This document shows positions 7,303-54,072 of a stretch of DNA of 64,000 nt, one piece after another. The position numbers and the translations under genes were made by a program. Position 1 is the stretch's first letter. The number at the start of each line of letters is the position of its first letter. The DNA comes from Pelagomonas calceolata. Taxonomy: Eukaryota; Sar; Pelagophyceae; Pelagomonadales; Pelagomonadaceae. The notes under the pieces are model-generated. The model was not told the origin of the DNA. It was given only the letters and a program-made list of their open reading frames with translations, and made no database searches. The stretch covers positions 62,001 through 126,000 of the forward strand of contig CAKKNE010000004.1 in NCBI GenBank assembly GCA_918797485.1, given 5' to 3'.

Positions 7303-8378
7303 ATGATGAGACTTCTACTCGCCTCCACACTAATCCACGTCGCCGCCGCGCTGGTGCCGCCCAGCACCACCAAGGCCCACACGTACCGCCCGTCGACGCA
7401 CAGCACCAAGGGACGGATCTGCCAAAATTCGAGCCCGCCGACGAACTGGGAGCTCGGCGAGCGCACGCGCGTCAAGCTTGTCCCGGGGGCGCAGCCAAAA
7501 AAGCTCCGGAAGAAGCAACGCCGATCTCGCTCGCCGATGCTCTACCCCTGTGAGACGGAGAACGGGGAAGAATGCTGGCTCCACGTGCCCGCGGGGCAGT
7601 CGCACCTCTCGGAAAGAAAAGATGAGATCCACGCCTACGTGACGGACTGCGAGGAAATCAACCAGTGACACCTTCGTGGGCCTCCACGCCATCGAGTAGA
7701 CGCGATGGCGTCTGGCGCCTAAAATTGACTTCCACACAGGTGACGGAGGTAGACGTCGACGACGCCGAGGGCGATATTCTTGTGCTGTCGCCGACGCGCT
7801 CCGAACAAACCGACAGAGCACCTGTCTCAGGGCCGCCGCACGGCGGTCGTTTATTGGATAAGCTGGCGAAGAACGATCCCATCGAGGGAACTGTATTGCG
7901 CATGCTGACCAAGGACGTGGCCCTCGTCGCCTGCCGCGGCGTCTACCGCAAGGCCGCGTCAGGATATAGAAGACAGGCGGCCGTGCTCCGGGAGGCGAGT
8001 GATTTGGCCGTGGGCGACACGGTCAACTGCTACGTGCGGCTCGTCGAGAAGAGCTCGGGCCGCCTCACGGTGTCGAGGGAACGCGTCGACACGGGCTCGC
8101 TGCGCAAGGAGCGCGTCGCCGCGCGCCTGCGCAAGAAGATCAAGCGCGGCACGCTCGCTCCTGGCAAACAACGCGTCGCGACCGTCGTCAACTACGTGGG
8201 CGATTTTCTACAAGTGGACGCCGGCGGCATTCTTGCCGACATCGATGCACCCGACGAGGAGGACTTCTCGGAGGGCGACCGCATCATGGTCCGCATCGAA
8301 AGCGTCGATGAACAGGCGCTGACGGCGACGCTGTCATACGTGGGTCTTGACGAGCTCGAGGAAGGCTTGGAGGAGTAA
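7303..8378 (+). CDS. Plastid-targeted S1-domain RNA-binding protein
   Basis: Two exons, 7303-7638 and 7740-8378, give 324 residues. The N-terminus is a signal peptide ending AAALVPP, followed by a basic transit region. This is the bipartite leader of secondary plastids. After a variable segment come two S1-like OB folds: about residues 185-250 (DPIEGTVLRMLTKDVALV...) and 270-320 (RVATVVNYVGDFLQVDAGGILADI). They resemble ribosomal protein S1 or PETs-type repeats, so a role in plastid translation is likely. The reading frame is restored exactly across the introner: HAY joins VTEVDVDD in phase 0. Unspliced RNA would stop shortly after residue 120. Confidence 0.85.
7647..7739 (-). mobile_element. 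Introner 1 (intron 7639-7739), perfect 8-bp duplication
   Basis: A 93-bp element with ends ctgcgaggaaatcaac and ttgacttccacacag and a core hairpin of ccatcg/cgatgg type. The 8-bp target duplication GTGACGGA is identical on both sides (7639-7646 and 7740-7747). The intron uses the GT of the left duplication as donor and the element's terminal CAG as acceptor. The element lies in reverse orientation relative to the gene. Confidence 0.92.
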
Positions 8379-8438
8379 GCTTGTACAGTAATACTTTTGT
8401 AGCATAGGCGCGCGTCGTCCGGCGAACGCGCGATCGGC

Positions 8439-9917
8439 TCACCAGGGCGGGTTTGAGACGACCGCCGCGGCGATGAGGCGTCGCGCCGCCTCGTCGGCGA
8501 CGCGGGTCCACTCCGGGTGATCATCTTTCGGGGTGTACGACTGTCGCGCCCGCACAAACTGCCGCGTGATGCCCATCCACTTCTGGAGCCCTCCCTCCCC
8601 GTCAAATTTCACGCGCTTCATCGCTGGGTCGACCTGCTCCATGACGTCAAAGATCGGGGCGCGCTTCTTGCCGTAGGCTCCGACCTCCCCATCGACGGCC
8701 GCGAGAATGCACTCCTCGGGACGCAGCCGCCCGAGCGACGCCTGCGGCCTCGGCGCGAAGTGCGCCGCGGGCGCGTACTCGTGCGCCGTGAACCAGGACG
8801 CCGCGGCCAACAGCAAGTCCCCGTCCCACTTATCAATACCACCGCTAGCAACAGCGAACAGGAGATCGAGCGCGCGCCGCGAACCGCGGGACACGTCGGC
8901 GAGTGGCAGTTCCGCGAGGTACTCCTTCTTCTCCCCGGCTTCCTTCTTCTTCCAATCAAAGCCGGGGATGTCCTTCTTCGTCGGGCCCCGCGGGCAGTCC
9001 GCGACCGCGGCGGCGGCGCCGAGGATGAACGCGACGTCGGCCTCGGTCGGTGCGTAGCCCTGGGCCGCGAAAAACCAGACCAGGACGCTGTTGATGCCGT
9101 CGAGCGGCGCCGAGTCCTCGCAGGACACGATCAGCAGGCGCCGCAGGGCCACGAACAGGCCGCCCGACTTCGGGAACGTGAGGAGCTCGCGGAACGCCTT
9201 CGCGGCCACGTCCGGCAACCGCCGGCGCACGGCCTTCTGAAACTGGCTCTTCATGAGCGTCGCGCCGTTGGCCTGACAGCCCGATTGCCGGTAGGCCATG
9301 GGCGACCGCTGCCATTGTTCGCCGCGCGCACCATCCGCGTCGTAGGCCAGGTAGACGGTCGCGGCGGTTCCTGGTGCTTTGAGGTGCGTTTTGAGCTTCA
9401 CGACGCGGCGGTCCTGCCACTGGCGCGTGAAGCCGCGCTGCGGCGCCATCGGTTCGCCGTCCGCCCACGACGCCGTCAGCCGGCCGCCGGAGTTCCTGAG
9501 GACGAAGGAGAGCACGCGCGAGCCGGGCGCGGCGGCCGGCACGGGCGCCAGCGTCACACGCCGCGCGCCCACCGCGGCGGCGTCGCGCTCCGCGCGTTCG
9601 GCGAGGCGCGCGAGAGCTTCTGCGTAGCGCGTCTCGGTCCCTGGCTTATCGATGAGGTCCTTCGTCGGGAGGCCCGCCCGCTTGATCGTCTCTTTCATCT
9701 CCTTGATGGACACGGCGTCCGTCCGCGCGCGCTGCGCCGGTGGTGGCGCCGCGTCCTCCTGCGAGTCCGCCGTCAGGTCGATGGTGCGCTTGTTGTTCTT
9801 CGGCGCCTCGCCGTTCAGCTCGGCAGAGAGCCTTCGCGCGAGCGCCGCGTCGGATTCAACCGTGCTTTGGCGCTCGTCGTCGTCCGATTCGCGCGTGAGA
9901 TCGATCTGGTTCTCCAT
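8439..9917 (-). CDS. Unknown protein with two SUMO-interaction-like motifs
   Basis: A 492-residue protein. The N-terminus carries two IDLT motifs followed by acidic runs (IDLTRESDDDE and TIDLTADSQED), the form of SUMO-interacting motifs. About residues 185-330 are helical (KSQFQKAVRRRLPDVAAKAFREL...ALRRLLIVSCEDSAP). They recall the alpha-helical C-terminal part of MgsA/WRNIP1-type AAA proteins (KALRR...LLxxAxEDxG), but no AAA domain is present. A role in genome maintenance is a weak inference. The gene converges on the S1 gene with 60 bp between stops. Confidence 0.7.
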   Translation of the reverse strand: MENQIDLTRESDDDERQSTVESDAALARRLSAELNGEAPKNNKRTIDLTADSQEDAAPPPAQRARTDAVSIKEMKETIKRAGLPTKDLIDKPGTETRYAEALARLAERAERDAAAVGARRVTLAPVPAAAPGSRVLSFVLRNSGGRLTASWADGEPMAPQRGFTRQWQDRRVVKLKTHLKAPGTAATVYLAYDADGARGEQWQRSPMAYRQSGCQANGATLMKSQFQKAVRRRLPDVAAKAFRELLTFPKSGGLFVALRRLLIVSCEDSAPLDGINSVLVWFFAAQGYAPTEADVAFILGAAAAVADCPRGPTKKDIPGFDWKKKEAGEKKEYLAELPLADVSRGSRRALDLLFAVASGGIDKWDGDLLLAAASWFTAHEYAPAAHFAPRPQASLGRLRPEECILAAVDGEVGAYGKKRAPIFDVMEQVDPAMKRVKFDGEGGLQKWMGITRQFVRARQSYTPKDDHPEWTRVADEAARRLIAAAVVSNPPW

Positions 9918-10129
9918 GATGGGTTGTCTGTGCTAGCTCCCACGGCCTTAAGGCTAGACAAATCCGCGCCCGCTGGCAGCACCGGTGGAAGGGTTACTGC
10001 GCCGCCAAGCGAGAGCTTCTCACAGTTGAGCGCAGCGTCAAACAAGCACCGAGTTAGAAAGGCCCTGTAAAACCCGACACATGACCGCTCGAGGCGTCCG
10101 TAAAAGGCAGAAAGTCGAATCACACCAAA
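9918..10129. other. Short intergenic region, no gene
   Basis: About 210 bp between two minus-strand genes. It contains CTAG near 9943 and 9992 around a GGCCTTAAG string. This is reminiscent of, but does not match, the palindromic promoter motif seen elsewhere. Confidence 0.4.
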
Positions 10130-11191
10130 TTACCGCACCCCAAAATACTCCTCCAACAAATCGCAGTCGCTCATGTCGATCGCGTCCGCGCGCTCCATCA
10201 GTTCCCGCCGCCGCGGCGAGAATTGCGCGGCGTTTTTGAACTGGCTATACCGCTGGCGCGCGCTGAAGCAGCCGTAGCGTAAGTGGGTTTGGTACTCGCT
10301 CTCGACGTTTTGTTCTTGCCGCCGCAGCGCGTAGCCGTCGCGCGCGTGCTTGGCACTAAACCCGTCCGCGACGTAATACCGAATGTCGGGCACAACCCCT
10401 CTAGACCGCGTCAGGCGCTCGTGCCGGAATTTGGCCGTCCGCTTCAGGGAGAAGGGCGGGTCGTACAGACTTCCACTATTCCCGAACATGATCAGACAGA
10501 GAAACAACAAAGGTATCAACTGCGCGACCTGCTGGCGCCAGTCTTGCGGCGGCGGCGCGCGCCGTTGGGTCCGCCGTCGCACGTGTTGTTGCGGGTAGCC
10601 GCCGCCAAAAAACATGTTGAAAATGTCCTCGGGAGACATCTCGTCGGCGTAGACGCCGCCGCCGGGTGGGCGTCTTCGTCTAGGAACGCCCATGCCCGGC
10701 TCGGGCTCGTCGTCGCCATACATGTCGTAGTGGCGCCTTTTATCTTTATCCGATAAGGTAGCAAAAGCTAAACCGATGCACTTGAACGCCTCGTCGGCGT
10801 CGGGCGCCCTATTTTTGTCCGGGTGGAACTTCAATGCCAATTTGCGGTAGGCCCGCTTGATTTGGTCTTCGTCCGCGGTCTTCTCGATGCCCAGCACGGC
10901 GTAGTGGCCGCGCCTTTTGGCCGCAATCACCTTCTTGACGGCCTCGACTTGTTGGGGAGTGAAGGCCGCCTTCGCCGGCGTCGCTGCCGGCTTGGAGGCG
11001 GCCTCGCGGGCGGCGGCGCCGCCCGTCGACGCGGACGCGAGCGTCCTCAACCGATCGACGCCGGCGAGCGAGCCGCCGGCGAGCCGCTCGGCCTTGTCGC
11101 AGAGCGAGAGGCACTTGGCCTTGTTGCCCTCCCTCAGGTACTTCTCGGCGAGGGCGCGGCACTTGAGCGCGGCGTCGCGGTTCGCCTCCAT
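10130..11191 (-). CDS. DNAJB12/B14-type ER membrane J protein
   Basis: A 353-residue protein starting MEANRDAALKCRALAEKYLREGN, the typical N-terminus of the DNAJB12/B14/DnaJ-DUF1977 family, which is why I start at 11191 and not at upstream ATGs. The J domain covers about residues 95-160 with the HPD motif (KFHPDKN), needed to stimulate Hsp70 ATPase. A Gly/Arg-rich linker, one membrane segment (VAQLIPLLFLCLIMFG) and a C-terminal DUF1977-like domain follow. Known relatives sit in the ER membrane and help quality control. The order and length match the family. Confidence 0.9.
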   Translation of the reverse strand: MEANRDAALKCRALAEKYLREGNKAKCLSLCDKAERLAGGSLAGVDRLRTLASASTGGAAAREAASKPAATPAKAAFTPQQVEAVKKVIAAKRRGHYAVLGIEKTADEDQIKRAYRKLALKFHPDKNRAPDADEAFKCIGLAFATLSDKDKRRHYDMYGDDEPEPGMGVPRRRRPPGGGVYADEMSPEDIFNMFFGGGYPQQHVRRRTQRRAPPPQDWRQQVAQLIPLLFLCLIMFGNSGSLYDPPFSLKRTAKFRHERLTRSRGVVPDIRYYVADGFSAKHARDGYALRRQEQNVESEYQTHLRYGCFSARQRYSQFKNAAQFSPRRRELMERADAIDMSDCDLLEEYFGVR

Positions 11192-12005
11192 CCTTCGCGC
11201 GGTCGGCCCGGCCTCGCAGCGCTTCCGCGTCCTGCGTGTCTGTGCAGTTGAACTGGTAGGGCCGCTGCGACGGCGTATATAATCTGCGGCGCAGCGGCTG
11301 CTTTCGTGTCCGAGCTGTGTGCTTGAGAGGCTCGGTGCTGAGGGCCGCCGGCGTTCGGCGGTGGTGCAGCGCTTTTGTGTGACCGGTCTAAGGCCTCTGG
11401 CGCCACGTACAAGCGCGGGTGCTGCCGTAATGCCTGCAAAAACTCGTCGCAAATCGACCACCACAAAAACCCGTGGCTTAGGCGATTTGCCTTACAGCCG
11501 TCCAGTCGCAATTCACGACTCCTTGGCCTCGGCCAGACGGGTCGAGTGCCCAACGGGTGCTTTCTTTGCGCGTAAAAAGCTTCAATTTATGTTAGCCTGT
11601 GGGTCCCTACTGTTGGTTCTGCGCTGGCGGCGCTGGAACGCGCGGTGGTGCATTTTAAGGGAAGCCAAACACAGTTCGGAGCCCCGGCCGCTGCGCCGTA
11701 GCGTGAACCCGTGAAATCGCGCTATCAATATCATAAACGACCCTCGGCGACCCAGGAGCCAGCCATTTGTTGCTACGGGGCGCGACTGGTGATCGTTACA
11801 AGCAGCGTTAATCCCTCTGAGGGCCGTCGCCACGTCCACCATTTAATAGCTCCAAAGAACTTTGAGGCTAACACGGGTCCCGGACGGCCGCCGAAGCCGC
11901 GACGCGGGTACCCGGCGAATCGGCCGTGGCGATGTTGCCGCTTCCTTAAATCGACGGCCGTGGTCGCAAGGAGCTGATCTTGATTGGACACAACTGCCAG
12001 CAACA
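11192..12005. other. Divergent promoter region, J protein / cyclin
   Basis: About 810 bp without a supportable gene between the J-protein and cyclin genes. Short open frames on both strands look like GC-driven noise. No repeat, tRNA or copy of the palindromic motif was found. Confidence 0.5.
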
Positions 12006-13215
12006 ATGGACCTCACACAATGGGAGAAGCGCAACCCGCGCCGCGGGAACGACGAGACCAATCAAGCGTGGGAGCGCGAGCTCGAAGACGACGAGTGCAT
12101 GCGTGACGCGCCGCCGCCGCCGCCGCGGTCGAGGACAAATTCCCTGAGCACGAATTCCAGCGACGGCGACGCGGCGCCGCGCGAGGCCGTGGAACTCTGC
12201 GGCATTTGTATGCTCATTGAGCACATGATGGCGAACCCTCCGCCGGGCGCCGCGGAGCCTCAGCAGCTCTCCGCGTTCTGGGCCACAACCGACGCCATGG
12301 CCGGCGCTGTCCCGTTGCCGAACGTCGCGGAGCTGCACGATTTCCTGTTCCGCTTGTTCGCGACCACCGGCCACACCCCGGAGTGCTCCGTCCTGTCGTT
12401 CATGTACATTCTACGACTGTTTTTGTCTGTGCGGAAATCAAATTTACGGCGCGTTCGCCCTGAATCGCAGCGTCGCCCTCCATGCCATCGACGCGACGCC
12501 TGCTCGATAGCGTGGCGGTGTCAGTTCCTCACCGCTCGACGGAGCCAGCGGCCACGTCGTCGCTGAGAAATGACTTAGTGAAGAATTATCGGGTGCATCC
12601 GACACACTGGTTGATTCCATGTGACACAGGTTTTCGTATCATCCTCATTTGCGAATCACGCCGCGGAATTGCAAACGCTTATTATTGTGCAGCGTCATGG
12701 TCTGTGTGGAAATCAACCAGTGTGTCGGGTGCACCCGACAATTCTTCACTAAGTCATCTCGGCGATGACGTGGCCGCACTGGTTCCGTCGAGCGGTGAGG
12801 AACTGGCATCGCCACGCCATCGAGCAGGCGTCGAGGCGATGGCGTGGAGGTCGACGTGATGATTCAGGACGATTGGGCCGTAAATTTGATTTCCACACAG
12901 GTCATGGTCGCTCAGAAGAACCACGATGACGCTCCTCTGCGAAACGTGGACTTCTCGACGGCGTGGGGCCACGTCCTGCCGGGCGAGCGGCCCGTCTCCC
13001 CCGAACGTATAAACGCAATGGAGCACATCCTCCTCAACGCGGTGGGCTTCGATTTATACGTCCCGCAGGATCAGTACGAGGCCTGCCTCGCGGAACTCCA
13101 TGGCGTCGTACGGTCGCACGCCGCGAACGTACATGACCTGCCCGTCCTGCTGCAGCGGCACGCCGAGTTCCTCACGACCCAGGCCGCGCGCCTCCCGTGG
13201 ACGACGCCCCCCTAG
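12006..13215 (+). CDS. PHO80-like (P/U-type) cyclin
   Basis: Three exons, 12006-12418, 12630-12693 and 12901-13215, encode 263 residues. The N-terminus is acidic and low-complexity. The cyclin box follows: TPECSVLSFMYILRL at the end of exon 1, TPRNCKRLLLCS in the 64-nt exon 2, and VMVAQKNHDD...ERINAMEHILLNAVGFDLYV in exon 3. This is the PHO80/cyclin-P pattern, with (T/S)..N.hRll..avm.A.K..DD and LE..hL...FdlyV. Only the three-exon model rebuilds it, which validates the introner splice sites. The family binds CDKs such as Pho85 or CDK5-like kinases in phosphate sensing or cell-cycle control; which applies here is unknown. Confidence 0.9.
12427..12629 (+). mobile_element. Introner 2 (intron 12419-12629), full length
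   Basis: A 203-bp element with ends ctgtgcggaaatc and ttgattccatgtgacacag. The duplication is GTTTTTGT at 12419-12426 and GTTTTCGT at 12630-12637, 7 of 8 identical. It contains the ccatcgacgcg core and the internal tgacttagtgaagaatt block shared with introners 3 and 5. Forward orientation. Confidence 0.93.
12702..12900 (-). mobile_element. Introner 3 (intron 12694-12900), full length, inverted
   Basis: A 199-bp element with ends ctgtgtggaaatc and gatttccacacag. The duplication GTCATGGT at 12694-12701 and 12901-12908 is perfect. Its reverse complement aligns almost throughout with introner 2, so the same family was inserted here in the opposite orientation and still forms an intron. Confidence 0.95.
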
Positions 13216-13348
13216 CGGGTATCGCTCTCTACCCGCCGAGACCCCGTTTCCAGTGATGATTCAAGTTCCCCTCGGTCGTCTCGGATCCGAAACACAAGTC
13301 TAGCTTCCCAATTAATCGTTGTTGTTACAGTATCTCTTACACACGGGT

Positions 13349-14867: not shown

Positions 14868-14899
<32 letters not shown>

Positions 14900-15785: not shown

Positions 15786-16655
15786 ATGGCCGCCATCCAG
15801 GCCGCAGTACAGGCCCTGTTCGATGTTGAAGCCCAGAAGCCCCAAGCCACGACTTCAGCCCTCCACCGCGACGAACCCGGGTCGCGGCGAGGCAAAAAAC
15901 GCTGCCACAGGCGAAGTGCCGACGCGTGCGTCGAGGTCGGCGAGGACGTCTTCCGATTGCCGGCCGTGCTCGACGAGCAGACCTGTCGAGCGGCCGTCAA
16001 CGAGGTCGACGATCGAGTGGCCTTGGGCCTGTCGACGACGAGGGGCGCGCAGCTGCCGACGACCGACGTCTACGTGAGAGATTTACGGTGCGCTGCCGCA
16101 ATACACGAGGCCGTCGATGCCGGCCTTCACCTGATGGAACGGTGCACGGGTTGAGTGCTGTGTGGAGATCAACCCACGCCATCGACGCGGTCACAGGTGG
16201 ATTTCCACCCAGGTCGCCTCGTCGACTGCAAAAAAGAGGAAATCTTCATCATCACCTATTGTGCCACCGGCCGCCGCAGCCTCGGGCGCCACACGGACGG
16301 CGACGGGAAAAGAACACTCCTCATCACGCTCGACGCGTCCCGAGATTACGCGGGCGGCGGCACGCGCTTCTACCCGAAGGAGGCCTCCGCACCGTCTTTC
16401 GTCGTGCGCCCGGCCCGAGGAGCTGCCGTCGCGTTCGACGGCTCGGTCGAGCACGAAGGCGAGGCGGTCGTCGGAGGCCGGCGCCACGTCGTCGTCGTGT
16501 TCGCCACCGAGGTGGACGAGGACGACCGCAGACCAAGCATAAGGGCCGCCCAGCGCCGAGCCGCCCAGAGCGTCTTCGCGGCGCCGCCGCCTTCGCCGCG
16601 GCGACACCAGCGACGAGCGCCACGCGCCGCGTCGGCCTACCGATCCCTGTTCTAG
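15786..16655 (+). CDS. 2-oxoglutarate/Fe(II) dioxygenase, prolyl-hydroxylase-like
   Basis: Two exons, 15786-16149 and 16213-16655, encode 268 residues. The double-stranded beta-helix is in exon 2. The iron ligands are the HTD motif in LGRHTDGDGKRTLLITL and the distal His in SVEHEGEAVVGG. Between them lie the strand LDASRDYAGGGTRFYP and the hydrophobic strand RHVVVVFATEV. This is the prolyl 4-hydroxylase-like 2OG-oxygenase superfamily (oxygen and 2-oxoglutarate dependent). The splice joins ERCTG to RLVDCKK in phase 1 and restores the fold. No signal peptide is seen, so it is probably cytosolic or nuclear; substrate unknown. Confidence 0.87.
16158..16212. mobile_element. Introner 4 (intron 16150-16212), minimal 55-bp form
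   Basis: The smallest clear copy: ctgtgtggagatcaac at one end, gtggatttccacccag at the other, and ccatcgacgcg between. Flanks GTTGAGTG and GTCGCCTC match at only 4 of 8, so the duplication has decayed or is not preserved. The GT-AG phases on both sides agree (phase 1). Confidence 0.85.
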
Positions 16656-26958: not shown

Positions 26959-27382
26959 ACTTATTGTGGCTTATTCTTACCGCGTCGATGGCGTGCAGCC
27001 CAGCCTGGCTGGCGTCCCCTCTCGCCACGAGAGCTCGTGCCCAGCCGGCCGGCGGCCGCGTCTGAGGCGGATTTTCGTAAAGCCGATTCTTGCGGGTCCG
27101 GGGCGTAGTTGAGCGCTCTTGATTTATCTTTTAGCAGCGAAAACGTCGCGAGATGCCGAAAATAGGGAGGTAACCCTAGTTAAGCGTCCTCGAGTTGGGC
27201 GCAGCGCTGAGCCGCAAAAAGGCGGGGTGCGCCGCAAAGGACGCGAAGGACGCTGCCCTTGGGCCATAGAAAACTTGTAGGTCCCCGTTCTTGTCCAAAC
27301 GCGCGTCCCACGGGCTGCCGATAGGCTCCCGCTTAGGACCATCTCTGGGCAGCCTCGTCGCCGCGCCCGACGCCTCGCAACC
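26959..27382. other. Intergenic with an introner-core-like fragment
   Basis: About 420 bp between two plus-strand genes. The string cgcgtcgatggcgtg near 26981-26995 matches the introner core, but no terminal repeats flank it, so it is at best a relic. Nothing else is recognised. Confidence 0.4.
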
Positions 27383-38423: not shown

Positions 38424-40814
38424 ATGGCAGCAACCCTGCTCTTGGCCGTGGCGCTCGGCGCCGTCGGCGCGCTGCAGCCGGCGCACCGCAGCGCGCGCCC
38501 CGCGCGGCGCACACAACTAAATGCGGAGGACCCGGACAAGCCCATGACCCTCTACGACCTGCCGGCCGAGGGCGAGCCGTGGCTGAACCGCTACTCGTCG
38601 ATGTTGACGAGGAACAAAAAACAGGGCGCATCGCAAGCGATGTTGTATGCCACCGGCTTGACGCAAGAAGACATGTCGAAGCCTGTGTGGAAATCAAAAT
38701 TTTACGGCGCGTCCTGAATCGCCGCGTCGACCTCCACGCCATCGACGCGGCGACTGCTCGATAGCGTGAAGGTGCCGGTTCCTCGCCGCCCGACGGAGCC
38801 GGCACGGCCGCGTCATCGCCGAGAAATGACTTAGTGAAGAATTGTCGGGTGCACCCGACACACTGGTTGATTTCCACACAGGCCGAAGCCCTTTGTCGGT
38901 GTTGGGTCGATCTGGTACGACGGCAACCCCTGTAACATGCACCTGTTGGAGCTGGGCACGTTGATCCGCAAGTCGTGCCAGGACGCTGGCATGGTGGGGT
39001 ACCGCTTCAATGCGGTCGGTGTCTCAGATGGGATCAGCATGGGTACGACGGGCATGAGGTACTCGTTACAATCCCGAGATTTGATCGCCGATTCGGTGGA
39101 GACGGTCATGGGTGCCCAGTGGTACGATGGTTTAATAGCCATCCCGGGCTGCGACAAGAACATGCCGGGCGTGGTCATGGGCATGGCGCGACTCAATCGG
39201 CCCGCGATCATGGTTTATGGCGGTACGATACGAGCTGGAAAACAACCCTCGACGGGAGAATCGTTGGATATCGTGTCGGCGTTCCAGTCCTACGGCGCGT
39301 ATGTGTACGACAAGATCGAGGAGGAAGAGCGCGCCGAGATTACGAGACATAGCTGCCCGGGCCAGGGCGCGTGCGGTGGGATGTATACGGCGAACACGAT
39401 GGCTACCGCGATAGAAGCGTTGGGCATGTCTTTGCCTTACTCCTCGTCGTCTCCCGCGGATTCGCAGGAGAAAAGAGACGAATGTGCCAGGGCTGGTGAA
39501 GCGATCAAGAAGTTGTTGGAGCTGGATCTCAAACCGAGAGATATCATGACCAAAGGCGCCTTCGAGAACGCTATAAGGATGGTCATGGTCACGGGTGGCT
39601 CTACCAATGCCGTGTTGCATCTGATAGCGATGTCGCGCGCGTGCCAAGATCCAGCAGTAAGGATCGGCCTGGACGACTTCCAGCGCATTTCCGACGAAAC
39701 GCCCTTCCTAGCAGACCTCAAACCTTCGGGAAAGTACGTCATGGAGGACGTCCAGAACATTGGCGGGACGCCGGGCGTGATTAAATTTATGATCGACAAC
39801 GGCATGTTCGACGGGTCCCAAATGACAGTAACCGGTAAAACCTGGGCCGAGAACGTGAAGGATCATCCGGGCCTGACGCCGGGCCAGGAGATCATCAAGC
39901 CGCTGTCGGACCCTGTAGATTTCAGTGTAAAAATCAAGCAGACCCGCACGCGATTCGAAGCGACGCCTGCACGCCATCGACGCGACGCCTGCTCGACAGC
40001 ACCTGACACTCACCGGTCTCTTCACGCGCAGGTCAAGGCGACGGGCCATTTACAAATTATGTACGGCAATGTGGCGCCCGGCGGCGGCGTCGCGAAGATC
40101 ACGGGCAAGGAGGGTGAGACCTTCACGGGCGTCGCGAAAGTCTACGATAGCGAGCCGGCGATGCTCGACGGCATTCTGAAGCGCGAGATCAAGTGCGGCC
40201 AGGTCGTGATCATAAGGTATGAAGGGCCAAAGGGTGGGCCTGGATTACCAGAAATGCTGACCCCCACCTCGGCGATCATGGGCGCCGGGTTAGGGGATTG
40301 CGTCGCGCTGCTCACGGATGGTAGATTTTCTGGAGGAAGCCACGGCTTCTGCATCGGCCACATCACGCCGGAGGCCCAGATCGGCGGGCCCATCGCCCTC
40401 ATCGAGGACGGCGACCCGATCCAGATCGACGCGCGCAACGACAAGCGCACGATCAACGTCATGCTGACGGACGAGCAGTGGGCGGAGCGCAGGGCGAAGT
40501 GGCGGCCGCCGCCGCTACGGGCGAACCAGGGTACGCTCTACAAGTACATGTCGGTGGTCAAAACGGCGTCCGAAGGCTGCGTGACCGACGAGCAAGTCCC
40601 AGACACCTCACCTATCTGGGCCCAGGAGGACGAGGGCGGCGCGGCGTCGGGTGCCGTCCCGGGGTCGCTCGAGACGGGTCCCATGACCATAGCAGAGCTG
40701 AAGGAGGAGCTGACGCGCCGCGGCGTCAAATTCTACGCGAGAGATCGCAAACACGTGCTCCGGGCGAAGCTGGACGCATGCTTGAGCGACGAGAGCTGCG
40801 CGACGTCGCGGTAA
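38424..40814 (+). CDS. ilvD: Dihydroxy-acid dehydratase with SAP-like tail
   Basis: Three exons, 38424-38674, 38882-39914 and 40032-40814, encode 688 residues. A plastid-type leader ([19 protein letters not shown]) precedes the enzyme. The iron-sulphur cysteines are in [15 protein letters not shown] and [11 protein letters not shown]; other signatures are [16 protein letters not shown] and [14 protein letters not shown]. It dehydrates 2,3-dihydroxy-isovalerate and -methylvalerate in valine, leucine and isoleucine synthesis. The family's normal end ([11 protein letters not shown]) is followed by ~60 extra residues ending [17 protein letters not shown], which resembles a SAP helix pair. Both introns restore conserved sequence: EDM-PKPFVG and [13 protein letters not shown]. 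Confidence 0.95.
38683..38881 (+). mobile_element. Introner 5 (intron 38675-38881), full length
   Basis: A 199-bp element with ends ctgtgtggaaatc and gatttccacacag. The duplication is GTCGAAGC (38675-38682) and GCCGAAGC (38882-38889), 7 of 8; the difference is T in the donor copy against C in the exon copy. It shares the internal block with introners 2 and 3. Forward orientation. Confidence 0.95.
39923..40031 (+). mobile_element. Introner 6 (intron 39915-40031), in-frame length
   Basis: A 109-bp element starting cagtgtaaaaatcaag with core cacgccatcgacgcgacgcctgct and ending cgcgcag. Flanking 8-mers GTAGATTT and GTCAAGGC are no longer alike (3 of 8). The intron is 117 nt, a multiple of three, with no in-frame stop, so an unspliced message would still be translated through it. 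Confidence 0.88.
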
Positions 40815-42638: not shown

Positions 42639-43276
42639 ATGGGCACCCTCCTACTGGACATCGCCCTCTTCGTCTCCGCCGCGCTGCTGATCCCGCCCGC
42701 GTTCATCGTGGCAAGCAAGGGCCCCATCGATGGCATCCGAGAGTTGGTTGGAGAGGACTCCATCACTGCCTACGACGAGGAATCGTACGTGCTGAAGCAT
42801 ATCGTCTTCATCGATTGTGCGAAGAACTGGTTCCTCGCGGCGCTCTATTTGGCAGCGATCACCATGGAAGCGGCCGCTAAGGAGAAGGTCGCGATCCTCG
42901 CCATCCTCCTGATGCGCGATCCAGAGCAGAAATGAACTTGAACTTGACGTCGTCGCGGCGATGGCGTCTTCATGAGACCACGTCGCCTCGACGCCGTCGA
43001 CGCGCTCTCGTGAATGAACTGAGACGGCATCGCGACGGCGTTGTCCCGCGCAGGCTCCTCATCGGCGCGGTGCAGGTGATCGCGCCCGCGAAAGAGTCGA
43101 TCGCGCCCTACCCGTCGCTCGAGGGCATCACGGGCAACCCGGTCTTCCTGCCCATCTGCGGCACGCAGATAGTCTTACTCACGCTAGGCGTCCTGTTCGC
43201 CTCGCCGGCGACGAAGAAGAAGAAGCCCGCCGCGACGCGGGCGACGCGGGCCTCGACGCGCGCGAAGCGCAGCTAG
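42639..43276 (+). CDS. Small four-helix membrane protein
   Basis: Two exons, 42639-42913 and 43054-43276, give 165 residues. Four membrane segments are predicted: LLLDIALFVSAALLIPP, NWFLAALYLAAITM, a third built across the junction (VAILAILLM joined to LLIGAVQVIA), and VFLPICGTQIVLLTLGVLF. The tail is Lys/Arg/Thr-rich (KKKKPAATRATRAS). The junction uses a GC donor at 42914 and gives a well-formed third helix. An alternative GT donor at 42888 with the acceptor at 43075 is also in frame but deletes that helix. Family unknown. The last 30 codons and 3' UTR are duplicated at 47412-47586. Confidence 0.72.
42922..43053. mobile_element. Introner 7 (intron 42914-43053), decayed, GC donor
   Basis: The start cagagcagaaatgaac aligns in register with the family end ctgtgtggaaatcaac. 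The subterminal gcgatggcgtc/gacggcatcgc arms form a hairpin and the end is cgcgcag. Flanks GCGCGATC and GCTCCTCA match 3 of 8. The predicted donor is GC. The membrane-helix continuity of the host gene supports it. Confidence 0.65.
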
Positions 43277-47352: not shown

Positions 47353-47411
47353 GCGCCTAAGTGTGCTGTGAACACAAGTTATGAATTACGAGGGCCCCGG
47401 ACGCGAAAGCC

Positions 47412-47586: not shown

Positions 47587-48558
47587 CGCGCGCGGCGGCG
47601 CGGCGCCGCAGTGCGCCGGCAGCCGCAACATCAAACGCACCGCCGCCTCGGCGACGCGCGGCGGCGTCGCCGCTGCTATATGGCCGCCCAGGACCGCCGG
47701 CGCCGCGTTCGACAATAAAGAGAGCGCGCCTATAATCAACCGCGCGCGGCCCGGCGCCAGCGGCTCATACTCAAACACGCCGTGGGGGTTGCGCATCAGA
47801 TAATAAGAAACGGACGCGACGGCCCCAAACAAAAACGCGGCGTAGCTCCGCTCCTTGCCGCGCCGCCGCTCGCCCCACAAATCTAAAGCGTGCACAGACA
47901 ACCCGCCGCCCGACGCGCCGAAGGCCCCGGCCATCAATGTACTGAACACCGAAGAACGCGGCTTCGGGTGGATCGCGCTTATGGCCTTGTCGGCGCCCCA
48001 CGACGTCACGGCGTGGCCCGTGCTGAGCGCAGCACCAATCGCAATCATTGATTTTATGATTTTGTGCTGGTACATACGATAGAATAAGTCCAAGGGGCAG
48101 CTCACACTCAACCAAAAAGCTAATAGCAGACTGCGGCACGCCGTCGGCGACGTCGTCCAGGACGCGGGCTGGCCTAATAAAAGGCCGACGAGCGTCGTGC
48201 CGCCGAACTGCATGAGGCAGCAGCACGCTAGCGCCAGGAACCAGGGCGTCTTTTGCTTGTTCTGTTCTAATCTCGCCCGGAACGCGCAGCAGCACACCGT
48301 GCTCCCGAAGAAGTCCATGGTCGAGAAGCGGAGCCATGTGATGGTATCAGTGATCCCGATTATAGGGAAGGCGTGGCTCTCGCAGGCGGCGTAGAAGTCT
48401 ACCATGGCGTCGTAGCCCGGCGGCGCGTCCTCCATCAAAGCTGTGGCGACTAAGAGTGCTATGATGATTGCGCTGGCGGCGGCGAAGCCTACTTCTATCG
48501 CTGTGTTTATCTTTTCATCGGGCGAGGCCTCGTAGGTGCGGTGCAGGGCGGAGAGCAT
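47557..48558 (-). CDS. TRIC-type intracellular cation channel
   Basis: A 333-residue polytopic protein from the ATG at 48558. The TRIC (TMEM38) pattern is visible: FGGTTLVGLLLGQPASW, LSVSCPLDLFYRMYQHKIIKSM, TSWGADKAIS and AGAFGASGGGLSVHALDLWG, matching the GG...LLG.P, CP.D..Y and GA.GGG signatures. TRIC channels carry K+ across ER/SR membranes to balance Ca2+ release. The last ~10 residues (PSTRATKRD) are encoded by the antisense strand of the duplicated segment, so this C-terminus is a recent patch. Confidence 0.82.
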   Translation of the reverse strand: MLSALHRTYEASPDEKINTAIEVGFAAASAIIIALLVATALMEDAPPGYDAMVDFYAACESHAFPIIGITDTITWLRFSTMDFFGSTVCCCAFRARLEQNKQKTPWFLALACCCLMQFGGTTLVGLLLGQPASWTTSPTACRSLLLAFWLSVSCPLDLFYRMYQHKIIKSMIAIGAALSTGHAVTSWGADKAISAIHPKPRSSVFSTLMAGAFGASGGGLSVHALDLWGERRRGKERSYAAFLFGAVASVSYYLMRNPHGVFEYEPLAPGRARLIIGALSLLSNAAPAVLGGHIAAATPPRVAEAAVRLMLRLPAHCGAAPPRAPSTRATKRD

Positions 48559-48756
48559 CCTGTTTTGCTTGTCAGTGGTGTAGTTCAGCAGCGGTTTCAA
48601 AGCACGCGTGTACACGCGTACAGCGGCAGTTCAGGAGCTGTTACTCTGTAACAATTGAAGCAAAACAACGCGCAGGACGCCGCGCGCAATGGGAGTTGCT
48701 TCGATGGTGGCTTACTTCCGCTAGGTAACCCTCTTTGGCGCGCGCGAAGTGTCTTG

Positions 48757-48774
48757 CGATACTTTATAGTATCG
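48757..48774. repeat. Palindrome cgatact-ttat-agtatcg
   Basis: Perfect 7-bp arms around a 4-base loop, in the promoter between TRIC and WWE genes. It could be a protein-binding site or RNA hairpin. Confidence 0.55.
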
Positions 48775-48856
48775 TCTCGTCTCGTGATAAGACGAGTGCA
48801 TTTCGTGCGGGCTCTCTCGATCTGCCCAAAAAAAGTAAAGATTGTCTTGTGATTGT

Positions 48857-48883
48857 GCTGTGGTATAACAGCTATACCACAGC
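48857..48883. repeat. Palindrome with 11-bp arms before the WWE gene
   Basis: Arms gctgtggtata and tataccacagc are perfectly complementary around a 5-base loop. It ends 61 bp before the start codon, probably in the 5' UTR, where it could control translation. Confidence 0.6.
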
Positions 48884-48944
48884 TTTAGGCAGCCCGACCG
48901 ACCGAACAGGCTCGTTGCGCAGCAGTCGAACCAAAAATAACGCA

Positions 48945-49929
48945 ATGCCTACCATGTTCCGCAAGCGGAAGGATGCCAACGAGGAGACCTTGGCCATGGG
49001 CCGCGTCGTGGGCGTGCGCAACGCCTCGCCGGCGCACCGCGTCGCGGCGCTCCAGGAGCGCGAGGGCGCCTCGGAACGCATCGCGCTCACGATGCAGAAG
49101 AGTTTTCGCGGCATGAAGGGCCGCGCTGCGAAGTGGTACTGGGAGGAGAGCGCGGCGCAGCGCGGGAATCAAGCACCTCTACGCCGTCGACGTGACTCGT
49201 TTGATCGCCGCGCAGGTCCGGAGCGCCTCCGCAAGCACGCCAACATCAAGAAAGGCACGCGCTGGGTGCCCTTCGACAAGGCCACGACGAAGAAGCTCGA
49301 GGATGCGGGTTCCAGGGTACAAATCAAATTTCGCGGCGCTCCGCTCGACGGCGTGGCGGTGCGGTCCTACTCACTGGTGATCAACGCACAGGCCTACTCG
49401 AAGCACGGGCCCGAGTCCGGGCTGCACCACGTCTACGTGTCGGCGACGCACGTCGTGGACTTAAAAGAGATGACGCAGAAGAACGTGCAGACCGGTGTGA
49501 GTTAGATTATCCTGAGAAGTATTCCTTTCACGCCATCGAGCCGACGCGGCCACGGGGACAACGTCGCGTCGATGGCGTGGGGCGCCTGAAATTCGATATC
49601 CACAGGTAAAGACCCGCTACTCGCGACGTATTTTACGCGAGGTCGTGAAGCTCCCCGGCGCGGAGGCGGAGTTCATGGCGCTCGTCTCGCAGTTCTCGAG
49701 GGACGTCGCGCCGCTGGCGAAGCAATTGGTTGGCACCCTGGTGACGCTGGTGGGCATCTTATTGAAACTCGGCATGAAACTCGTGGACGTCGGGCGCCAG
49801 CTTTTCAATGAGCGCACCGCCGACATGCGGGAGGCCGCGGCCGAGAAGAAACAGCGGGCGCTACGGGCCGCGGCTGCCAAAGCGCGCGCGACGGCGGACG
49901 CGCTCGACGCCGCGGCACGTGCTGGGTAA
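48945..49929 (+). CDS. WWE-domain protein
   Basis: Three exons, 48945-49149, 49216-49484 and 49606-49929, give 265 residues. The WWE domain is split over all exons: WYWEES at the end of exon 1, WVPFDKATTKKLED and VVDLKEMTQKN in exon 2, and VKTRYSRRI in exon 3. The W..WEE, W.PFD, MTQ.N..T..RRI landmarks only line up after splicing. WWE domains bind poly(ADP-ribose) or its iso-ADP-ribose unit, usually in ubiquitin or PARP systems. The C-terminal part has a long amphipathic/hydrophobic helix (VGTLVTLVGILLKLGMKLVDV) and an Ala-rich coil, possibly for membrane or self association. Confidence 0.83.
49158..49215. mobile_element. Introner 8 (intron 49150-49215), short, GC donor
   Basis: A 58-bp element starting cagcgcgggaatcaagc and ending gatcgccgcgcag with core ctacgccgtcgac. 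Flanks GCGCGGCG and GTCCGGAG match 5 of 8. The donor is GC. The 66-nt intron is a multiple of three without a stop, so it is hidden in a read-through frame; the WWE landmarks argue for its removal. Confidence 0.72.
49493..49605 (-). mobile_element. Introner 9 (intron 49485-49605)
   Basis: A 113-bp element starting cggtgtgag and ending attcgatatccacag. Flanks GTGCAGAC and GTAAAGAC match 6 of 8. Its last ~45 bp are nearly identical to introner 12 (cgcgtcgatggcgtggggcg...). Reverse orientation. The junction QKN-VKT restores the WWE domain. Confidence 0.9.
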
Positions 49930-50055
49930 CAAGAAAAGGAATCCGTTCGTAGTCTTAGCGGCGCGCGCGGGGCCGGGGGATCGTCTCGTCCACGATCATG
50001 GCCAGGGGACCCGCTCTCGTCTCGCGGGCTGCGCGCGTCGCGGTGCGCCGGGCAC

Positions 50056-50884
50056 CTAGTACTGGTTTGACAAGTACTCGACCGTGTACTTGGTGTTGTA
50101 GCACTTGTTCGAGAACACGTCCTTGTTGTTGCTAGGGGACCCGTCCGTCGAGCCGATGCAGAACTTCTGAGTAAGGACGTAGTCGAGGTAGCCGTCGTAC
50201 TTCTGTCCTCTGCGAGGATTCCCGCCTCCCATGGGCAAGGTGATCTGCTGGCGCTGGCCGCCGCTGTTGTCGATCCACTGGCACTCCTGCATCTGGATGG
50301 GCGAGCCTCCATTGCTGTACTGGCCGTTGCGCCCGTAGAGCGCGACACAGCCATCGTAATTGCCGTCTCTGGATAGGAAGCGCAGGTAGTATCTGTCGGC
50401 CTGGCCTGTGGAGGAATATTTCTCCAACCTAAACTTCTGAATGCCCTGTGAAGGGGAGTCACTCTTGGTGAAGAGTGTGACGCGGTTCAAATCATCGTCG
50501 CCGCCCAAAGGCGGGTCTTGAATCTTGTTACCCTCTGCGTGTAAACCACCGAGTGAGTCGGGCGTACCGATAGCGGGCGGGGGCGCCGCGAAATTTGATT
50601 TATGCGCTGCTAGAACTGTTCGGCACGCCGAGGCAGTAGTCCTTGCCTTTAAGACATATCTGTACGTCCCACGACCCGTTCAACTCCGACGATGGCAGCT
50701 TTTCCCCGCCGGTCGCCCCGAAGGACAGGTACTTCCCGACCGCCGCGGGCGCCTGGTAGCCCGCGACAGCGCATGCGATGCATAGAGCGGCCGCGGTGAC
50801 CTTGAACTTGGGCGACGCCGCCTTCGGCGCCGCGGCGATGAGGGGCTCGGCCTCGTCTTTCGGGATCGTCGTGTAGGTAGCCAT
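50056..50884 (-). CDS. Small type II membrane protein, Cys-containing ectodomain
   Basis: Two exons, 50884-50617 and 50534-50056, give 248 residues. A short cytosolic N-terminus with an acidic dileucine-like EAEPLI is followed by one membrane segment (FKVTAAALCIACAVAGY). The outer domain has several Cys (CLKGKDYCLG, CVALYG, CQWIDN, KFCIGS, NKCYN) and Gly/Tyr/Asn-rich strands (KYDGYLDYVL), a secreted beta-rich style. I recognise no family. The preferred junction is VPN-KGNKIQD; an alternative GT donor at 50626 with acceptor giving exon start 50532 is also in frame. Confidence 0.68.
50535..50609 (-). mobile_element. Introner 10 (intron 50535-50616)
   Basis: On the coding strand the element starts cagcgcataaatcaaatttcg, matching the family's forward end, and finishes tttacacgcag. 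Flanks AGTTCTAG and AGGGTAAC match only 3 of 8. The donor GT is at positions 2-3 of the left flank, unlike the other copies. Confidence 0.72.
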
Positions 50885-51321
50885 GATTCAATTTGTAGGT
50901 GGTGTACACCTGCGTAGATATCGTTCGACTGACGCGCGTCGCGCGCGCCGCGCGTTGCCGATGAGGGTTTCTCCACGGCTGAATCGACTGTCGCGTGTGT
51001 GGGCAGACCGTTGGGCGGCGCGCGGGCGGGCGGGCGTGCCGCGCGCCGCGTTGCGGCTGTCACTCTCCTCGCCTGCTACTTAGGAAAATGAAAAAACGCG
51101 CTCCGCGAGCCCCGGGAGCGCGGCGCGTCGCTCGTCACAGCACGACTGAAACACGGATGCGCCGCCTTGGCAAATTTTGACGCGGGTAGACCACGTCACG
51201 GAGCAAAAAGGAAGCAAATTGGCCGGCGCAAAAAAAAGAGGATGAGCCTCATTTTGGACTACCGTCGACGCCCGTCGACGCGTCCCACCGATATATACTA
51301 TGTTAAAGAAGCAGGAGCCAC
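50885..51321. other. Intergenic, nothing recognised
   Basis: About 440 bp between two minus-strand genes, holding the promoter of the small membrane protein. A poly-A run near 51228 and atatatac near 51291 are the only notable strings. Confidence 0.45.
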
Positions 51322-52220
51322 CTAGTGGCGCGTCGCGTCCCCGTGCGGCGCGGCGCCGTCGGCTGCATGAATTTTCGAGTTGAGGATGCGGCCCGGCACG
51401 ACGCCCGTGTCCATGCCGCCGACCTGCGTCATCTCGTCCAGCGCGTCCTCGGCGACGGGCTTGAAGTACTTGGGGTGGCGCGCTTCGGAGTCCTCCCAGG
51501 CGGCGTCCTCCGCGAGGAGGGTCGCGTAGTCCTTGGCGCACTCGTCCCGGTGCGTCGCGGCGGCCTCCGCGGCGAGCGTTCGGGCGGCGGTCGCCTGTTC
51601 GAGGTCGCGCGCGTCGAGGGCCCGGACCTTGGCGGCGGGTGCGCCGCTCCAGAGCTCCGTCGCGGGCACGGACGCGCCCGGCTCCAAGAGAGATCCGGGG
51701 CCCAAGTTGCCTAACACAGTGGCGCCGGCGCCTACGATAGCTCCGGCACCGACGACGGCGTTGCTCTCGACGGCGCCCAGGACAACAGCGTTTGGCCCGA
51801 CGAGCGCGCCTTCGCCCACCGGGCTCTTCACCACAGCTCCGTCGCCCACGTAGCCTTCGATGGGCAGGCGCGCGCCATTGGCCTCGACGACAGCGCCGTA
51901 GTTCACGGCGGCGGCGGCGCCTACCGCCACGTCGCCGATGAGCGTGGCCGTGGGTGCCTGTGCAAGAATTAAATTTCACGGCGCTTCTCCACGCCATCGA
52001 CGCGAAGTCCGGGACAGGTTGATTCCACACTGGTCGGCACAACAAATGCGCCGGCGGCCACGCTGGGCCTGGCGCCGTTCGCCTCGAGCTGGGCGCCGAC
52101 GTCCGCGGCGGCGGGCGGCGCATAGGCCATGAGCGACGCGCCGGCGCCGCGCAGGGCTACACCCACGGTCCTTAGGTGCGGCGCGAGGGTGCTCAGGATC
52201 TTCTCTGCGGCTTGCGCCAT
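51322..52220 (-). CDS. Gamma-carbonic-anhydrase-like hexapeptide-repeat protein
   Basis: Two exons, 52220-52041 and 51957-51322, give 271 residues. The splice joins AAGAFV to APTATLIGDVAVG, rebuilding the left-handed beta-helix start typical of gamma-carbonic anhydrases. Hexapeptide repeats run to about residue 155 (GEGALVGPNAVVLGAVESNAVVGAGAIV in pieces) and a helical tail follows. In active enzymes three His bind the metal; the usual GHS position here reads GPN and no compensating His is visible, so it is probably a gamma-CA-like structural subunit of mitochondrial complex I. The plant and algal complex I carry such subunits on the matrix arm side. Confidence 0.85.
51958..52032 (+). mobile_element. 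Introner 11 (intron 51958-52040)
   Basis: In coding-strand sense the element starts cagtgtggaatcaac and ends tttaattcttgcacag, with core gcgtcgatggcgtgg. Flanks GTGCCGAC and GCACCCAC match 5 of 8. Relative to the gene it is in reverse orientation. Phase 0 on both sides. Confidence 0.9.
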
Positions 52221-52681
52221 GATTTTTTTCGATTCAATGCGTCTGTGGCGAGCAGCGAGGCGGCAGCGGCTGTGTGGCTGAGCTCAAGGCAGATGTGGTT
52301 TAGGCTTCAGCGGGGAGCAGCGCGGCCCGAGGAAGTTGGCGAACACACGCGGGCGGCTCGGTAAACAGCTAGAAACACGCGTCAGTGGCGGCGACGGCTT
52401 AGCTCGCTTGCGCGATGGCCCGGGGCAAAAACAGAGCTAGCGGCCTGTAACACACTAGCAAGCTATTTAATTTTTCGTGCCTATTGTTCGGGGGGTTTGC
52501 CGAGGGTCTTCTGCTTAGAAGGAAGTATGCTGTTATGAAAGACGCGGCAGGCACGCGCTCGCCGCCGAGGAATCGGCGACGCGCGGTGTTTCCTCCCGGG
52601 GCGCCGCCCACTGGTCCTAGCACCGCAACAGAAAAGTCGCGTCGGGCGCCCGCCACCCGAAGAAAAATACAACGAAGAGCT
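52221..52681. promoter_or_regulatory. Promoter of gamma-CA-like gene
   Basis: About 460 bp between two minus-strand genes. It holds palindrome copy 7 at 52436-52459. No gene is seen; the open frames here are on the plus strand and unsupported. Confidence 0.5.
52436..52459. promoter_or_regulatory. CTAGCG-N9-ACACTAG palindromic motif, copy 7
   Basis: GCTAGCG, nine bases, ACACTAGC. It lies 216 bp upstream of the gamma-CA-like start at 52220. Confidence 0.6.
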
Positions 52682-54072
52682 TTACCCCTCCGGCGGCGGC
52701 CGCGGCCCCCGCGGCTCGAGCGAGACGAAGTCCCGGATGTCGTCCACGAGCGTGTCGAACCAGCGCCTCGCTTCCGCGTCGTCCTCGTTACCAATATTCC
52801 GGATGGCCTTGTTGATGCCGATCAAATCAAACGTCACGGCGTTGGCGACGAGGACCGCGCGGTCGCGGTCGGGCCCCTTGGGCATGGCCTTTCTGGCTTT
52901 GCCCAAGACCGCTTTGCGGAAGTCGAGGTCCCACTGCTTCGTGAACTCGCGGAGCTCGCCGTAGTCCTTGGCGGCGATTTTTTGTTGCATGAACGCGAGG
53001 CCGCCGGTGCCGGCGCCCTTGAGCTCCTCGCGGATCGCGTCGAACTCCGGCCAGTCCGACGCATAAGCAGGCGGTGCTGCTGCGAAGGCTAGGAGAGGCG
53101 CGAACAAGCCTGTGTGGAAACCAACCAGTGAGTTACAACGCCGCGTCGATGGCGTGGGGCGCCCGAAATTTGATTTCCACACAGGAACAAACTCGACACC
53201 TGGCGCCGCGTCGCCGTTAATAAATCAGACGGCTGGTACGACTCGTCATCGATGACCAGCATCGTCGCGCCGATGGACCGCCCCCGGAACTGGAGGAGGT
53301 GCGCCGTGAGGCGCTGCAGCGCGGCGCGGCGCTCGCCCACGATCTGCAACGCGCGCGCAAGCGCCGCGCGCCGCTTGCTTCGATAGTCGTCCCGGAACAG
53401 CGACACCAGGATGCGCTCGTCGTGGGCGTGGAGCCTGGCGCGACCGTACTCGAGGGCCTCAGCAGCAGCACCAGCAGCAATAACCACCGCGTAGCGGTCC
53501 ACCAACTCCGAGTCCTCCCCGGACGTCAGCGCGTCCTGGAGCGCGCCGTCGCAGAAGGCCGACGCCGGCGCCGCGCGGTCCAAGCCGCCGACCTTGTTTT
53601 GCCAGAGCGCGTCGAAGGGCGTCAGTGTGCAGTCCACGGCCGGCACGCCCAAAGCGTACGACGCCAATAAATGACCCGCCTCGTGCGCCGCCACTCTTCT
53701 ATCGTCGCCGCTCTCGCCCGTCAGCACGTCGAAGGCGCTTAACTCGAAGCCCGTGCGCCGCTCGAAATCCTCGACATCAGCAAGGTTCGCGTCCTCGGAA
53801 TCAAAGGTCGGCGCGAGGCCCTCGCGCTTGGCCGCGTGGTAGGCCACGGCGACGCGGTCCTGGGCCCGCCTTCGTGCCCTACGCACGGCTTTATCGTTGT
53901 CATGGAAGCCGCCCTGGAAGACCTCGGACGGCTTGAACGTCTCCAGGCTGGTCGCGGCCGAGTCCAAGCGGTCCGCCGCGCGCGCGCGGGGGCTGTTGCT
54001 CGGAGTTAGTCCCAATAGCGCGTTGGCCGCCGCGAGCACGAGGAGGAGGTGGGCTGGATTGTGCCTCTGCAT
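52682..54072 (-). CDS. M41-like peptidase fused to a thylakoid-lumen protein
   Basis: Two exons, 54072-53193 and 53109-52682, give 435 residues. The start at 54072 gives a signal peptide (HLLLVLAAANALLGLTP) and transit region. About residues 125-285 follow the FtsH-related M41 group without the AAA module: zinc motif HEAGH at 130-134, ALGVPAVDCTLTP, GAAAEALEYG and the closing GRSIGATMLVIDDE. A twin-arginine signal (TATRRQVSSLFAPLL...AYA) starts near residue 286, followed by a ~120-residue soluble domain (EFTKQWDLDFRKAVLG, ANAVTFDLIGINKA) resembling algal lumen proteins. The two parts are in one frame with no stop between them. Either this is a polyprotein cleaved in the plastid or an unusual fusion. 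Confidence 0.78.
53110..53184 (-). mobile_element. Introner 12 (intron 53110-53192)
   Basis: A 75-bp element with perfect-looking ends (ctgtgtggaaa.c and gatttccacacag). In coding sense the flanks are GTTTGTTC at the donor and GCTTGTTC at the exon side, 7 of 8. The donor copy has T where the exon copy has C. Forward orientation relative to the gene. Confidence 0.95.

What the first reader, a model, noticed from the sequence alone, without database searches (positions are those of the whole stretch)
7639..53192. Nearly all introns in the window are introner elements
I can place 13 introns in 10 genes by reading-frame continuity and protein conservation. Twelve share ends like CTGTGTGGAAATC/GATTTCCACACAG, a CCATCGACGCG core or its remains, and mostly recognisable 8-bp flanks; the thirteenth (ATP synthase alpha) is ambiguous. 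The other ~25 genes are intronless. Intron gain in this genome region therefore looks like one transposon-like family and little else. Introners of this type are established in Micromonas and Aureococcus; the near-complete share here is the notable part.
Basis: partly seen in the sequence, partly recalled or inferred. Interest (0 to 1): 0.85.

Follow-up and report, generated by a model that had tools for sequence, protein, structure and literature searches.

The report
Pelagomonas introns made by a mini-transposon
Most introns that can be identified in this stretch of a marine alga's genome are copies of one small mobile DNA element that brings its own 3' splice site and takes its 5' splice site from the DNA it duplicates on landing; such elements are already known in this alga and its relatives.

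Summary
The elements are real. The window (G000:C4:62001-126000) matches Pelagomonas calceolata, where introners were already mentioned in print (Guerin 2022). Where proteins could be checked (DHAD twice, cyclin-Y twice, a gamma-carbonic-anhydrase-like protein), removing the element restores a continuous conserved protein.

Structure: 15-bp terminal inverted repeats CTGTGTGGAAATCAA, an 8-bp target-site duplication (TSD), 55-204 bp. TSD copy 1 gives the GT/GC donor; the right TIR ends in CAG, the acceptor; TSD copy 2 stays as exon. Both orientations occur. Genome-wide, about 94% of 1,721 exact TIR ends adjoin a GT or GC donor on one strand (symmetry assumed; chance 32%).

"Nearly all introns" is not shown genome-wide: about 1,900 recognisable copies against about 7,500 annotated introns, and the window is denser than a 200-kb sample.

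New here, as far as my searches went: the TSDs favour a palindrome, GYnnnnRC (about GTCnnGAC), like hAT and P transposon targets, so landing itself tends to write a donor on both strands. No transposase with these TIRs was found.

The parts
7639..7739 (+). Introner intron 1: TSD GTGACGGA (7639-7646) + element 7647-7739; gene 7303-8378
   Evidence: TSD 8/8; profile E=1.7e-13; ends p=0.00005; removal gives one open frame; no Pfam match in the spliced protein
12419..12629 (+). Introner intron 2 (subfamily A, antisense): TSD GTTTTTGT/GTTTTCGT; cyclin-Y-like gene
   Evidence: profile E=3.7e-52; cyclin-Y alignment runs over the junction, with a one-residue gap a few residues downstream
12694..12900 (+). 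Introner intron 3 (subfamily A, sense): TSD GTCATGGT 8/8; same cyclin gene
   Evidence: profile E=7.6e-59; cyclin-Y alignment runs over the junction without a gap there
16150..16212 (+). Introner intron 4, 63 nt, decayed TSD (4 of 8 differ); 2OG-Fe(II) oxygenase gene
   Evidence: profile E=1.9e-9; spliced frame open; 2OG-FeII_Oxy_3 match lies downstream of the junction
38675..38881 (+). Introner intron 5 (subfamily A, antisense): TSD GTCGAAGC/GCCGAAGC; dihydroxy-acid dehydratase (DHAD)
   Evidence: profile E=9e-61; the two alignments shown to solved DHADs run over the junction without a gap
39915..40031 (+). Introner intron 6, 117 nt, in frame and free of stops; DHAD
   Evidence: profile E=1.5e-6; left-end p=0.0004; with it left in, all 18 matching solved chains align in two stretches, the listed stretch ending at residue 388-390 in 14 of 18; the two alignments shown resume at 428
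49497..49605 (+). Introner intron 7, left TIR lost, donor position uncertain; gene with weak WWE match
   Evidence: profile E=5.1e-10; ends test not significant, p=0.145
50535..50616 (-). Introner intron 8, decayed; gene not scanned against Pfam (one search failed)
   Evidence: profile E=0.0012; ends p=0.00015, scored on 50535-50618; frame continues
51958..52040 (-). Introner intron 9, TSD GTGCCGAC/GCACCCAC; left-handed beta-helix (gamma-carbonic-anhydrase-like) gene
   Evidence: profile E=8e-6; the solved CA3 chain shown aligns without a gap at the junction
53110..53192 (-). Introner intron 10 (subfamily B): TSD GTTTGTTC/GCTTGTTC on the minus strand
   Evidence: profile E=1.9e-21; frame continues
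42914..43053 (+). Possible 11th, GC donor, strongly decayed
   Evidence: intron called by an introner-blind gene model; ends p=0.0026, no significant profile hit

Best explanation
These introns are copies of a non-autonomous TIR transposon (a MITE) acting as an introner. A transposase acting in trans inserts the element into DNA and duplicates 8 bp. [quoted passage not shown] Because the ends are nearly symmetric and the target preference is palindromic (GYnnnnRC, about GTCnnGAC), either orientation can be spliced. Inferred: splicing in vivo, the transposase, and that insertions without a usable donor were purged from genes.
For: TIR/TSD pairs with no hits in the reversed control. 31 of 37 non-redundant elements have TSD mismatch <=1; all 31 start GT or GC in at least one orientation, 25 with GT. 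Genome-wide, of 1,721 exact TIR ends: GT at the outer TSD edge in 703, GC in 371, GY....RC in 537; by symmetry 1,611 (93.6%) have a donor on one strand, against 31.6% by chance. Both orientations are used: subfamily A 6 sense / 9 antisense / 6 ambiguous; B 5 / 6 / 5. Protein continuity after removal: DHAD, gamma-CA, cyclin-Y, kinase in L042 with two elements. An introner-blind gene model calls an intron overlapping the anchor element in 16 of 21 non-redundant loci, often with shifted boundaries.
Against: No RNA data. Six transposase models (five superfamilies) searched; the only hit is a hAT element with other TIRs. The symmetry step is assumed: RC-only ends were not counted. In the window and L042 the protein checks used introner boundaries to choose the junctions, so they test exactness, not share. 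The right-end score partly overlaps an ordinary acceptor consensus. In 5 of 21 loci the introner-blind model called no intron at the anchor.
Confidence: 0.92

Rival explanations
1. Nearly all introns in the whole genome are this one introner family, most of them too decayed to recognise.
For: Of 8 introns whose removal joins a conserved domain (window 12419, 12694, 38675, 39915, 51958; L042 5779, 6108; L044 7468), 7 match the family significantly. A graded series from intact to barely visible copies exists.
Against: About 1,900 recognisable elements against about 7,500 annotated introns. The L044 7468-7608 intron is only borderline (p=0.012) and the candidate L045 3732-3837 is not significant (p=0.23). 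Most of the 8 were chosen where an introner lies.
Confidence: 0.35
2. Introns in this genome are a mixture: this family is the largest class recognised here (about a quarter to two fifths of annotated introns), beside ordinary or otherwise derived introns.
For: Copy counts against the annotation; candidate introns without family signs: L045 3732, L048 6581, window 5160.
Against: None of those three candidates is confirmed by protein homology; the published exon-level specificity of the ab initio predictor was 0.669, so part of the annotated introns may be wrong.
Confidence: 0.55
3. The GT/GC enrichment in TSDs reflects only selection for splicing, not target preference.
For: Selection alone gives strong one-sided enrichment; an introner-blind model calls an intron at the anchor in 16 of 21 loci.
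Against: RC given GY is 537/1,074 = 50% against about 31% expected, by hand calculation, from one-sided selection. Selection acts on one end only, so it does not explain symmetry.
Confidence: 0.2
4. The shared ends are merely conserved splice signals of unrelated introns.
For: CACACAG resembles a generic acceptor.
Against: Left TIR at donor +9, 11 full-length subfamily-A copies at 90% mean pairwise identity over about 200 bp, and TSDs.
Confidence: 0.01

Closest known systems
Introner elements of Aureococcus anophagefferens and Micromonas (Huff, Zilberman, Roy 2016; paper not held, recalled and as cited in PMC9481584 and PMC9860276)
   Same: MITE-like DNA introners with TIRs and TSDs; same algal class for Aureococcus; Guerin likened the Pelagomonas intron length peak near 210 bp to the Aureococcus elements
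   Different: Sequence homology to the Aureococcus elements not tested (no such genome at hand)
Introners mentioned in Pelagomonas calceolata (Guerin et al. 2022, PMC9481584; passages read, supplements not available)
   Same: Same species and very probably the same elements
   Different: The passages read give only the intron length peak; TIR, TSD, donor co-option and target palindrome do not appear in them. Supplementary Note 3 could not be read
Introners of Symbiodinium microadriaticum (Gozashti et al. 2022, PMC9860276; sections 7 and 8 and passages read)
   Same: TIRs, own 3' splice site, 5' splice site taken from the TSD (Fig. 2B legend)
   Different: 4-bp TSD there, 8-bp here
hAT (hobo) and P-element transposons (Linheiro and Bergman 2012, PMC3276498; passages incl. 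Table 4 read)
   Same: 8-bp TSD and palindromic target motif: hobo GTNCGNAC, P-element GTCCGGAC; here about GTCnnGAC
   Different: No transposase with the introner TIR was found; the one hAT element seen has TIR CAGGGCAGCAGAAGGGCAAG

Membership tests
Introner (TIR/TSD type) | Many similar introns at unrelated positions in one genome | tested here: met
   37 non-redundant elements in the loci held; about 3,840 TIR ends above control genome-wide
Introner (TIR/TSD type) | TIRs and fixed-length TSD | tested here: met
   31 of 37 elements with <=1 mismatch in 8-bp TSDs; reversed-TIR control 0
Introner (TIR/TSD type) | Splice sites partly carried, partly taken from the target; protein unchanged | tested here: met
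   Donor statistics; protein continuity
Introner (TIR/TSD type) | Spliced in vivo | not testable with these tools
   No transcript data at hand
MITE | Short, TIR-bounded, too short to encode a transposase | tested here: met
   55-204 bp in the 37 elements; the finder's upper limit was 600 bp, so longer copies were not excluded
MITE | Related autonomous element with the same TIRs | tested here: inconclusive
   None found: hAT 1 hit with other TIRs; MULE 0, KDZ 0, P-type 0, IS1595/Merlin 0. The control genomes gave no hit for hAT, KDZ or P-type; other families were not searched
hAT or P superfamily | 8-bp TSD with palindromic GT...AC target motif | tested here: met
   compared with PMC3276498 Table 4; the motif is graded, not strict
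hAT or P superfamily | Superfamily transposase acting on these TIRs | tested here: inconclusive
   None found; searches partly blind
hAT or P superfamily | TIR beginning with CA (rule recalled, from no call) | tested here: not met
   TIR begins CT

The most novel reading that the evidence does not exclude
The unseen transposase has an intrinsic palindromic target preference (about GTCnnGAC, hAT/P-like) that places GT at the outer edge of the TSD on both strands, while the element ends in CAG at its 3' end whichever strand is read. The element is therefore a two-way intron maker from the moment it lands: target preference, not only later selection, explains why it became an introner. This predicts that TIR transposons whose palindromic target begins with GT are predisposed to become introners.
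Probability: 0.45. Interest if true: 0.65.

Novelty: new member of a known kind. Interest (0 to 1): 0.42.

Why it matters
It gives a base-level description of an introner family in a very abundant marine alga, with protein-level evidence that a conserved enzyme tolerates two insertions, one of them in frame and free of stops. The palindromic GT...AC target gives a testable reason why some transposons and not others turn into introns. The claim that almost all introns are of this origin remains open and could be settled with RNA-seq.

Tried and rejected
Autonomous element: hAT (PF05699) gave one 3.65-kb element with another TIR; MULE, KDZ, P-type (two models) and IS1595 gave nothing. The TIR pattern in viral contigs gave 43 loci, about chance level by my own estimate; in 3 of the 43 there are TIR pairs, none with a matching TSD, and none of the 43 holds the exact core. 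An unpaired TIR in L024 looked like a long element but lies at the 5' side of a predicted gene; its other end was not found within 1.5 kb. Core remnants near 26981 and 40891 are not significant. Ab initio gene models over-call introns by joining genes; joins were recognised when complete domains lay on both sides. The kinase search showed mostly unbroken domains but its best-126-of-291 list could not be followed up for lack of letters. A donor inside the TIR (GTGTGG) is rejected for DHAD: it would add 10 nt and break the frame (inference).

Full report
Where it is. The window is G000:C4:62001-126000 of a 32,445,274-base genome in 8 contigs. This fits Pelagomonas calceolata RCC100: six nuclear contigs of 32.4 Mb plus plastid and mitochondrion, GC 63.6%, a duplicated end on contigs 1 and 5 (PMC9481584, passages read). 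The window has 64.5% GC, and kinase hits of equal score lie at matching places near the starts of C1 and C5. The name is thus an inference, a strong one. That paper reports 16,667 genes, 0.45 introns per gene and a length peak near 210 bp likened to Aureococcus introners, so introners in this species are already mentioned in print. Its supplements could not be read.

Observation. A strict finder needing both TIRs and a TSD gives 5 elements in the window and 9 in the 20 sampled 10-kb stretches, 0 in the reversed control. The core alone, with one mismatch allowed, occurs 30 times in 64 kb and proves nothing. Aligning 37 non-redundant elements gave two related groups (21 and 16 members; a few poorly scoring ones, such as L033, were kept), both with the 15-bp TIR and mostly an inner CGCGTCGATGGCGTGG. 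Profiles built from them find 10 window elements at E<=0.0012 on the better model, one more window hit at E=0.017 in coding sequence, and 17 sample loci at E<0.02; the best control score is 8.5 bits with model A and none with model B. Five of the 10 and nine of the 17 were in the training set.

Exactness of the introns. Removing TSD1 plus element gives open frames. DHAD is the clearest case. The two alignments shown to solved DHADs run over the first junction without a gap. With the second introner left in, all 18 matching chains align in two stretches; in 14 of 18 the listed stretch ends at residue 388-390, and the two shown resume at 428. The missing 390-427 are 38 of the 39 codons of 39915-40031, which is in frame and has no stop. 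Solved cyclin-Y aligns over both junctions of the 12-kb gene, with a one-residue gap a few residues after the first, and a gamma-carbonic anhydrase over 51958-52040 without a gap there. A kinase in L042 matches profile positions 4-258 in one stretch once two introners are taken out. For the gene at 7303-8378 no Pfam domain was found, and for the 2OG oxygenase the domain lies after the junction, so these two rest on frame, TSD and profile. Introns 7 and 8 (49 and 50 kb) rest on profile and frame; intron 7 fails the ends test.

Donor statistics. Of 31 elements with TSD mismatch <=1 (6 of 37 dropped), 25 have GT in at least one orientation and 6 only GC. Of 1,721 exact TIR ends genome-wide, 703 have GT and 371 GC at the outer TSD edge, and 537 have GY at one edge and RC at the other. 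Assuming symmetry, 2 x 1,074 - 537 = 1,611 (93.6%) have a potential donor on one strand; chance is 31.6%. Both orientations are used about equally.

Target palindrome. If only selection acted, about 31% of GY ends should also end in RC (hand calculation from the coding background); 50% do (the two ends of one element are not independent, so the p value printed is too small). In the first 100 listed GT-first TSDs (100 of 703, all on contig 1), position 7 is A in 36 and position 8 is C in 50, against 14% and 26% in coding DNA; p about 1e-5 and 5e-5 after allowing by hand for antisense elements. This resembles the published motifs of hobo (hAT, GTNCGNAC) and the P-element (GTCCGGAC), both with 8-bp TSDs (PMC3276498 Table 4). 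I infer a hAT- or P-like transposase, but none with these TIRs was found; the control genomes gave no hit for hAT, KDZ or P-type, and the lone hAT element has other TIRs.

Share. About 3,844 TIR ends above control imply roughly 1,900 recognisable elements if both ends are counted, about a quarter of some 7,500 annotated introns; the profile density in the sample gives about 2,750, a little over a third, if every copy is an intron. The window is nearly twice as dense as the sample. Of eight introns whose removal joins a conserved domain, seven match the family and one (L044 7468-7608) is borderline, p=0.012; this set leans towards introners because most were chosen there. Four more in the sample lie next to a domain that starts part-way (L031 3812, L042 7709, L045 4161, L050 8309): three match at E<0.01, and L050 only at its right end, p=0.0013, with an uncertain donor. 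So 'nearly all' is possible, not shown.

Structure. The two introns folded as RNA form a terminal stem from position 9 to the last base, z about -3 against shuffles. This follows from the TIRs; a role in splicing is speculation.

Verdict. The elements and mechanism are well supported, the kind is known, the species was known to have them, and the share claim is open. What is new to me is the palindromic GT...AC target and its consequence for making splice donors; the listings of my six literature searches and the passages I read did not turn this up, but the 2016 paper and the supplements were not readable.

Noticed in passing
L051:1049-4699: A hAT-like element, 3,651 bp between inverted repeats, with an exact 8-bp TSD TTGCTCGC and TIR CAGGGCAGCAGAAGGGCAAG; the only hAT dimerisation-domain hit in the genome; its TIR is unrelated to the introners.
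   Followed up: partly
L042:1559-7911: Five introners within 6.4 kb, two of them in one kinase gene; copies cluster strongly.
   Followed up: partly
window 12419-12900: Two subfamily-A introners in opposite orientation, with a 64-nt exon between them, give a long inverted repeat (122-nt arms).
   Followed up: yes
G000:C6:1744362-1745123: A kinase domain hit with six stop codons inside, probably an intron within the domain or a decaying gene; letters could not be fetched.
   Followed up: no
L044:7468-7608: Phosphoglycerate-mutase-like gene with an intron (domain continuous after removal) that shows only borderline introner ends; best candidate for an ordinary or very old intron.
   Followed up: partly
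L050:186-338, L049:5962-6036, L036:4543-4614: Decayed family copies not called as introns by the gene model: outside or at the edge of predicted exons (L050, L049) or inside one (L036); possibly UTR or intergenic insertions or mis-called exons.
   Followed up: no
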